From contig NZ_REFP01000008.1 in the NCBI RefSeq assembly GCF_003688725.1, positions 372,001 through 436,000 on the forward strand: a stretch of 64,000 bases of DNA, in the 5' to 3' direction. The stretch comes from Thermoactinomyces vulgaris. GTDB taxonomy: Bacteria > Bacillota > Bacilli > Thermoactinomycetales > Thermoactinomycetaceae. Position numbers and translations under genes: made by a program. Positions within the stretch are counted from its first letter, which is position 1. The number at the start of each line of letters is the position of its first letter. This document shows positions 53,107 to 61,807 of this stretch, one piece after another. Below the pieces are notes generated by a model, which made no database searches, was not told the origin of the DNA, and was given only the letters and a program-made list of their open reading frames with translations.

Positions 53107-54021
53107 ATGCCATTAACACCTTTAGATATACACAATAAAGAGTTTAAAAGATCTTTCCGTGGATATGATGTTGATGAAGTGAACGATTTTCTTGACCAGA
53201 TTATTAAAGATTTCGAACTGCTCACACGGGAAAAACTGGAACTGGAACAACAAGTGGAAGAGTTACAGGCAGAGATTGAGCGTTTGATGGAAGACGAGTC
53301 CATGTTCCAAACCGGGCCGCAGCAAATGCAACAACAGCAGCAAGCCGCACAACCGCCGGCGCCGGCACCGGCACCGCAACCGATGCAACGTTATCCGGAG
53401 CCTGTTCAGCATCCGTCGCCTCAAGCATTGAGCTCGATGGAACAAAGCATTCACAAGTCGATCCGTGTGGCTCAGGAAGTGGCCGAGGAAGTTCGCTTAA
53501 ACGCCAAGAAAGAAGCCGAGTTGATTGTTCAGGAAGCAGAGAAAAATGCCGACCGGATCATCAACGAAGCATTGCAAAAGGCCCGTGCCATCCACAGCGA
53601 GCTGCTTGATTTGAAACAAAAAGCCACCGTCTACCGTGCACGTTTCCGCACACTGGTGCAATCGCATCTGGACATTCTGGAAAACTCCGATTGGGAATCT
53701 TTGGAAGAGTTGGAGTCCGGTTTGGAAGAGCAAGGTAAGAAACTTGAACAATATGCGGAACAGGATCAATCCCGGGAGATGTTGATGGATCAAAACACCC
53801 AGGAGTATAAAGACTTCAACACCCAGGAGTATCAGGATTTCAACACCCAAGAGTACCAAGATTTCAACACGCAGGAATTCCAGGATTTCAATAACATGAA
53901 CAATGTCGAAGATAATGCCGTCATGGACGAAGTCGCCGCTTCTTCTTATTATGAAGAAGAAGAACCACGCCGCGAGTTGCGCAGAACATCCAGAAAACTG
54001 AAGAAGAAAGCCATGTTTTAA
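53107..54021 (+). CDS. divIVA: Septum/pole protein DivIVA with C-terminal octapeptide repeats
   Basis: Coiled-coil protein of 304 residues that recognises curved membrane and recruits pole and division partners. Start ATG 53107 after CAGGAGGTGCG. Family N-terminus MPLTPLDIHNKEFKRSFRGYDVDEVNDFLDQIIKDFELL, with the membrane-inserting Phe/Arg pair at about 18-19. Then a coiled coil, a Gln/Ala/Pro-rich linker at about 78-115, a second coiled coil at about 120-215, and four tandem octapeptides NTQEYQDF at 230-261. A basic tail RRELRRTSRKLKKKAMF ends it. Longer than B. subtilis DivIVA (164) because of linker and repeats. Confidence 0.95.
   Translation: MPLTPLDIHNKEFKRSFRGYDVDEVNDFLDQIIKDFELLTREKLELEQQVEELQAEIERLMEDESMFQTGPQQMQQQQQAAQPPAPAPAPQPMQRYPEPVQHPSPQALSSMEQSIHKSIRVAQEVAEEVRLNAKKEAELIVQEAEKNADRIINEALQKARAIHSELLDLKQKATVYRARFRTLVQSHLDILENSDWESLEELESGLEEQGKKLEQYAEQDQSREMLMDQNTQEYKDFNTQEYQDFNTQEYQDFNTQEFQDFNNMNNVEDNAVMDEVAASSYYEEEEPRRELRRTSRKLKKKAMF
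53794..53889 (+). repeat. 24-bp minisatellite inside divIVA
   Basis: Four in-frame copies of 24 bp (53794, 53818, 53842, 53866) encode NTQEYKDF, NTQEYQDF, NTQEYQDF and NTQEFQDF. Copies differ mainly at synonymous sites. Confidence 0.92.
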
Positions 54022-54049: not shown

Positions 54050-54315
54050 CAAAAGAGAATCAGGGCTAATGGTAAAGAAAGGGAAGAGTAGATAGGTAAA
54101 CTCGTGTTTGCAGCGAATTAGGGATGGTGTAAGCCTAATCCGAGTTTCTATCGAAAATCACCCTGGAACTGTCACCTGAAATTGGAGTAAGGTCGACCGC
54201 GTCATCCACGTTAAGGATGGTTGAGAGGTTTTGTCTCCAATTCAAGGATACGAAGCCAGTAGGGTGGTACCGCGGGAAACCTTCTCGTCCCTAGAGGATG
54301 CAGAAGGTTTTTTTA
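54050..54315 (+). ncRNA. T-box riboswitch (isoleucine) upstream of ileS
   Basis: The T-box core AGGGTGGTACCGCGG is at 54261-54275, within the antiterminator that reads uncharged tRNA. In stem I the specifier loop presents ATC (54150-54152), an Ile codon. The terminator AACCTTCT (54278-54285) with AGAAGGTT (54302-54309) and T-run follows. Uncharged tRNA-Ile should stabilise the antiterminator and switch on ileS. The 5' limit is approximate. Confidence 0.93.
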
Positions 54316-60967: not shown

Positions 60968-61669
<702 letters not shown>

Positions 61670-61674
61670 CATCA

Positions 61675-61782
61675 ATCCCTTTTAAATCGGTCCAGTGAGT
61701 CCGGCAAAGGGATGCGGTTGACAAACAAGCGCTGTATTGTTTTACTGCGTCTCTTTGCGTATGGGCAAAGAGACGTTTTTTT
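61675..61782 (+). promoter_or_regulatory. PyrR attenuator 2, upstream of pyrP
   Basis: The PyrR-binding hairpin ATCCCTTTTAAAT...GGTCCAGTGAGTCCGGC...AAAGGGAT spans 61675-61712. The terminator CGTCTCTTTGC (61748-61758) with GCAAAGAGACG (61765-61775) and a T-run follows. Confidence 0.88.
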
Positions 61783-61807
61783 ATCCTCAACAAAGGAGTT
61801 AAGGCCA

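What the first reader, a model, noticed from the sequence alone, without database searches (positions are those of the whole stretch)
53794..53889. In-frame 24-bp minisatellite in divIVA
Four octapeptides NTQEYQDF near the DivIVA C-terminus, with mainly synonymous differences, mean selection on the protein repeat rather than fresh DNA slippage. Copy number may vary between strains. The Gln/Asn/aromatic repeat could mediate self-assembly or recruit a partner at the pole.
Basis: seen in the sequence. Interest (0 to 1): 0.55.

Follow-up and report, generated by a model that had tools for sequence, protein, structure and literature searches.

The report
Repeat tail of a remodelled DivIVA
The four repeats sit in a floppy tail that most relatives in one order of bacteria, thread-forming species among them, carry on the cell-pole protein DivIVA along with a second floppy stretch in its middle; what the tail does is not yet known.

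Summary
The repeat is real: four in-frame 24-bp units at 53794-53889 encode NTQEYKDF, NTQEYQDF, NTQEYQDF and NTQEFQDF in a 304-aa DivIVA. Silent sites differ between copies about as much as independent codon choice gives, yet the peptide is nearly fixed: old duplication kept by selection on the protein, not fresh slippage. Unit number varies between species (4 here, 3 in Thermoactinomyces mirandus, 1 in T. daqus).

The repeat is one case of something wider. In 38 of 41 DivIVAs found in the order, the protein carries a P/Q-rich insert between head and coiled coil, an acidic tail rich in [QNH][DE][FY] triplets, and a basic cap ending KAMF. Of 78 other Bacillota DivIVAs none has the insert or the cap. 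Two genomes of a sister family lack all three; one outlier has a different tail. The insert matches a layout that a 2025 preprint calls actinobacterial, against an unbroken coil in Firmicutes.

I propose that the tail is a multivalent flexible arm that clusters DivIVA and docks partners at hyphal tips. Anatomy is well supported; function and partner are inferred. New variant of a known kind.

The parts
53107..54021 (+). divIVA, 304 aa, ATG start behind AGGAGG
   Evidence: Pfam DivIVA 119.5 bits; PDB sequence match to DivIVA 2wuj, E 2.9e-17 over residues 1-55
53107..53286 (+). N-terminal DivIVA domain and first coil (residues 1-60)
53287..53430 (+). P/Q-rich insert between N-terminal domain and coiled coil (residues 61-108)
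   Evidence: pLDDT below 50 for residues 68-99; spacing 92 here against 44 in 78 of 78 Bacillota outside the order
53431..53706 (+). second coiled-coil domain (residues 109-200)
   Evidence: helix 105-193, pLDDT mostly above 90; aligns without internal gaps to 11 tail-less relatives
53794..53889 (+). four 24-bp repeats, residues 230-261, NTQE[YF][QK]DF
53890..53964 (+). acidic spacer ending DEVAASSYYEEEE
53965..54018 (+). basic C-terminal cap PRRELRRTSRKLKKKAMF
   Evidence: pattern R[KT][LMF][KR][KR]KAMF at the C-terminus in 38 of 41 order DivIVAs and 0 of 78 others

Best explanation
The repeat is part of a disordered C-terminal arm that DivIVA gained, together with a flexible insert in its middle, most simply once, on the stem of all families of this order except f2 (supported by distribution and one gene tree). 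The N-terminal domain still holds the protein to the membrane and the coiled coil still oligomerises it (known for the DivIVA family). The insert uncouples the two, as proposed for actinobacterial Wag31. The arm carries a lineage-variable number of acid-aromatic stickers ([QNH][DE][FY]; seven in this protein) and ends in a conserved Arg/Lys-rich cap. Inferred: on an oligomer many arms lie side by side, and stickers and caps, of opposite charge, cross-link neighbouring DivIVAs or dock partners, so that a stable cluster marks a hyphal tip or branch site. Unit number tunes the valency, which would explain why units are gained and lost while their sequence is kept.
For: Spacing from Tyr20 to the coiled-coil start is 44 residues in 78 of 78 other Bacillota and 79-127 in 38 of 41 order genomes. 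AF2 draws one helix 22-145 for a Paenibacillus DivIVA, but helix 22-68, a gap, helix 105-193, a weaker helix 196-238 and low confidence beyond (233-271, 282-291 and 297-304 below pLDDT 50) for the window protein. Over 23 genera, [QNH][DE][FY] is seen 48 times, 6.5 expected from shuffled tails, maximum 16 in 2000; reversed [FY][DE] 10 against 27.4. In ten genera of families f3-f6 alone, 8 against 2.6, reached by 6 of 5000 shuffles; the middle inserts have none. Beyond residue +95 of the coiled coil, 91 triplets in 3428 residues in the order, 0 in 476 in the 78 others. The variable tail is net negative in 38 of 38, the cap +5 to +8. Cap identity 0.80 against 0.20 for the variable tail. IleRS tree: the two f2 genomes are sister to 26 genomes that have the additions, support 1.0. 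Thermoactinomyces species form branched, septate mycelium (PMC7840651, passages).
Against: No binding, localisation or condensate data. I chose the motif class after reading all the tails, those of f3-f6 included, so the split test is not blind. Five of 38 tails have no such triplet, and tandem structure at 0.01 is found in only 12 of 38, so a high repeat number is not essential. AF2 lets a weak helix run into the first repeat. G007, in the same family, has a 67-residue spacing and an S/T/P/Q-rich tail without the cap. Two of the 78 others also have longer C-terminal ends (L125, L130). That the f2 genomes are rods is recalled, and mycelial growth was not checked for each genome with the additions.
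Confidence: 0.48

Rival explanations
1. The cap is a docking peptide for the DivIVA-type groove, of GpsB or of DivIVA's own N-terminal domain, through an [ST]Rxx[RK][RK] sequence like the GpsB-binding SRxxR(R/K) motif of PBP1; the repeats are only a spacer.
For: Loose motif [ST]R..[RK][RK] in 36 of 38 caps, strict [ST]R..R[RK] in 3 of 38. Motif and groove residues from PMC6335420 (passages and section 6). The positions of Tyr25, Leu34 and Asp35 are kept in 20 of 20 GpsBs examined. Three of four transglycosylase-domain PBP frames of this genome carry SRxxR ahead of the membrane segment, in one of them ahead of the first Met of the frame.
Against: Asp31, which salt-bridges the key arginine, is Asn in 20 of 20 GpsBs, the two f2 genomes included, and Glu17 is Asp in 20 of 20. 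The second arginine is Lys in 35 of 38 caps. The paper's motif lies close to the membrane; this one ends a long arm. Mapping to B. subtilis numbering rests on recall.
Confidence: 0.2
2. The basic cap binds anionic membrane or the nucleoid and the acidic tail keeps it apart; the repeats are a passive disordered spacer under weak constraint.
For: Cap charge +5 to +8; low predicted order of most of the tail; variable tail of 28 to 175 residues.
Against: A passive spacer does not explain a directional acid-then-aromatic grammar across 23 genera, nor near-fixed amino acids beside randomised silent sites. The KAMF end shared by 38 of 41 is more specific than charge alone needs.
Confidence: 0.22
3. 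A plain minisatellite from recent slippage in a tolerant region, with no role.
For: Unit count differs between species (4, 3, 1), and repeats arise easily in disordered tails.
Against: Silent sites between copies are as different as independent codon choice gives, and the frame stays open to the cap in 38 of 41 order DivIVAs.
Confidence: 0.1

Closest known systems
Bacillota DivIVA (B. subtilis type)
   Same: N-terminal domain, coiled coil, place in front of ileS (neighbours named by eye, not searched)
   Different: Insert of about 35-83 residues, added tail and cap; the predicted coil is broken
Actinobacterial Wag31/DivIVA
   Same: Disordered insert between membrane-binding and coiled-coil domains (PMC12393619: abstract start, passages and section 7)
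   Different: No second insert inside the coiled coil; Wag31 equivalog score 77.2 against a cut-off of 260; no such cap mentioned in the passages I saw
FtsZ C-terminal linker plus conserved C-terminal peptide
   Same: Works like: variable disordered linker, then a short conserved peptide (search listing and abstract starts only; otherwise recalled)
   Different: Unrelated protein; no homology claimed
GpsB-binding SRxxR(R/K) peptide of PBP1
   Same: Loose resemblance of the cap
   Different: Second Arg mostly Lys; the cognate Asp31 is Asn

Membership tests
DivIVA family | N-terminal DivIVA domain over the curated cut-off | tested here: met
   PF05103 119.5 bits, cut-off 28; 2wuj E 2.9e-17
DivIVA family, Bacillota type | single continuous coil from the N-terminal domain into the C-terminal coil | tested here: not met
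   spacing 92 against 44 in 78 of 78; broken helix in the AF2 model, unbroken in the one control
Actinobacterial Wag31/DivIVA type | disordered insert between the two domains | tested here: met
   feature
Actinobacterial Wag31/DivIVA type | second conserved insert within the coiled-coil domain | tested here: not met
   coiled coil aligns without internal gaps to 11 tail-less Bacillota
Actinobacterial Wag31/DivIVA type | Wag31 equivalog score over its cut-off | tested here: not met
   77.2 bits, cut-off 260
GpsB-groove ligand | SRxxR(R/K) in the peptide | tested here: inconclusive
   strict [ST]R..R[RK] 3 of 38, loose 36 of 38
GpsB-groove ligand | cognate Asp31 in GpsB | tested here: not met
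   Asn in 20 of 20
GpsB-groove ligand | binding | not testable with these tools
   needs an assay
Recent minisatellite | near-identical DNA copies | tested here: not met
   identity not clearly above what independent codon choice gives
Recent minisatellite | variation among strains of one species | not tested
   one genome per species held

The most novel reading that the evidence does not exclude
Mycelial Bacillota made a hyphal-tip organiser out of an ordinary rod-type DivIVA by the same step that actinobacteria took, splitting head from coil with a disordered insert, and added a sticker tail with a conserved cap; the three additions came with the mycelial habit and are needed for it.
Probability: 0.33. 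Interest if true: 0.78.

Novelty: new variant of a known kind. Interest (0 to 1): 0.5.

Why it matters
Which features of DivIVA allow polar, branching growth is mostly studied in actinobacteria. A second lineage with the split layout, and a sister family without it, gives a natural comparison. It also limits the generalisation in PMC12393619 (section 7) that Firmicutes DivIVA is one continuous coil. Searches of the held library for DivIVA with Thermoactinomyces and with Thermoactinomycetaceae found no paper; that library lacks most subscription journals, so earlier notice elsewhere is possible.

Tried and rejected
Further copies of the repeat or of the cap in the genome: none at E up to 10. 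Loss of the Min system as the reason for a changed DivIVA: MinC is in 42 of 42 genomes of the order, so it does not separate the groups. Strict GpsB motif: 3 of 38 only. Ordering the units across species: window copy 2 and T. mirandus copy 3 share 21 of 24 bases, as many as the closest copies inside the window, so the units cannot be ordered. A first regex for the insert length failed or misplaced 31 of 78 outgroup rows and was replaced by alignment; its tail lengths failed for 33 of 78 and were recounted. Rod shape of the sister family: the papers found did not settle it. Paper searches without a use here. Rows dropped: the IleRS tree used 35 of 40 loci; G004, G007 and G042 gave no IleRS frame in the stretch, G005 and G044 scored low; 26 of the 38 genomes with the additions are in it. 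Searches trimmed the acidic block next to the cap and used one tail per genus. One search stopped on a script error; one search is the mended run.

Full report
What is there. The closest named DivIVAs are those of Thermoactinomyces mirandus and T. daqus and of related genera such as Lihuaxuella and Laceyella; the window's G+C is 49.1%. divIVA runs from 53107 to 54021. Two encode NTQEYQDF, one has K for Q and one has F for Y.

Old copies, fixed protein. Pairs of copies share 17-21 of 24 bases; pN is 0-0.10, and there are 2-5 silent differences on about 3.3 silent sites. Drawing codons independently for the same peptides gives a mean identity of 19.2; 19.7 is observed, and 29.5% of 5000 draws reach it. 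Silent sites thus keep no clear memory of the duplication. With 24 bases per unit this is a small sample. T. mirandus has three units, T. daqus one.

The tail across the order. The order search covered 42 genomes; 41 have a DivIVA match, and G006 (68% complete) has none. I read all 41. In 38 the protein has insert, tail and cap. G023 and G028, both in family f2, have none of the three (167 and 166 aa). G007 has a smaller spacing (67) and an unrelated tail without the cap. Other genera repeat other units: DFHTGQ in Laceyella, DFQQHN in Hazenella, NQEYH in Paenactinomyces, NNDFR in Thermoflavimicrobium, NEFP in Baia and Croceifilum. Tandem structure beats shuffles at 0.01 in 12 of 38 tails.

A shared grammar. 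The repeated units just named contain an acidic residue followed by an aromatic one. Over one tail per genus (23), [DE][FY] occurs 70 times against 27.6 expected, the reverse order 10 against 27.4, and [QNH][DE][FY] 48 against 6.5. Without six genera with tandem repeats the triplet count is 17 against 3.4, reached by 0 of 2000 shuffles. As a check I split the data: in ten genera of families f3 to f6 the count is 8 against 2.6, reached by 6 of 5000 shuffles, and the middle inserts of the same proteins have none. I had seen these tails before choosing the motif, so this is a split and not a blind hold-out. The last 30 residues of the 78 outgroup proteins show no direction: 17 [DE][FY] and 16 [FY][DE]. 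Five of 38 tails lack the triplet.

The cap. 38 of 41 match R[KT][LMF][KR][KR]KAMF at the C-terminus, 0 of 78 others do. Among the 38 one further arginine is invariant; cap identity averages 0.80, variable tail 0.20, coiled coil 0.94 (the fixed letters of the pattern are invariant by construction). A search of 398 genomes of the class found the cap in 33, all 33 of them in this order; G008 and G017, whose cap is visible by eye, were missed at that threshold, so the search is not fully sensitive.

The insert. From Tyr20 to the coiled-coil start there are 44 residues in 78 of 78 other Bacillota DivIVAs and 79-127 in the 38. The 78 are the 59 loci outside the order among the best 80, plus 19 genomes of the class; they are not a random sample. 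After the coiled-coil start, 76 of the 78 have at most 118 residues, L130 has 141 and L125 173, while the 38 have 157-304. AF2 draws one helix from 22 to 145 in a Paenibacillus control. In the window protein it draws helices 22-68 and 105-193 with residues 68-99 below pLDDT 50 between them, a weaker helix to 238, and mostly low confidence after that; of the repeat, residues 230 and 233-261 are below 50. A 2025 preprint reports such an insert in actinobacterial proteins and a single continuous coil in Firmicutes (PMC12393619; passages and section 7). The present order is an exception to the latter.

Origin. In an IleRS tree of 35 genomes the two f2 genomes are sister to 26 genomes that have the additions, with support 1.0. 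One gain on that stem, with a later change in G007 (not in the tree), is the simplest reading. Thermoactinomyces is mycelial (PMC7840651, passages). I recall that Novibacillus, which I suspect to be G023 from its single contig of 3,629,225 bases, is a rod; no call shows this.

Mechanism. Shown: sequence, conservation, distribution, low predicted order, and opposite net charge of tail and cap. Known for the family: membrane binding by the N-terminal domain and oligomerisation by the coil. Inferred: that the arms work as multivalent stickers at hyphal tips. The GpsB-groove idea is a lead with one feature against it (Asp31 is Asn in 20 of 20 GpsBs).

Verdict.

Noticed in passing
window 54066-54295 (+): T-box leader between divIVA and ileS, 113 bits.
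   Followed up: no
window 60971-61089 and 61674-61783 (+): Two PyrR binding sites.
   Followed up: no
L121 (G007): A family member whose DivIVA has an S/T/P/Q-rich tail without the cap and only a 67-residue spacing.
   Followed up: partly
L173 (G005), L195 (G044): The best frame near divIVA aligns only weakly to the window's IleRS (scores 1096 and 1067; the loci kept for the tree scored 2989 or more), perhaps another IleRS type.
   Followed up: no
L117 (G013): The longest tail (458-aa open frame), with a second repeat series of NMMDYQPNNN type ahead of NDFR units.
   Followed up: no
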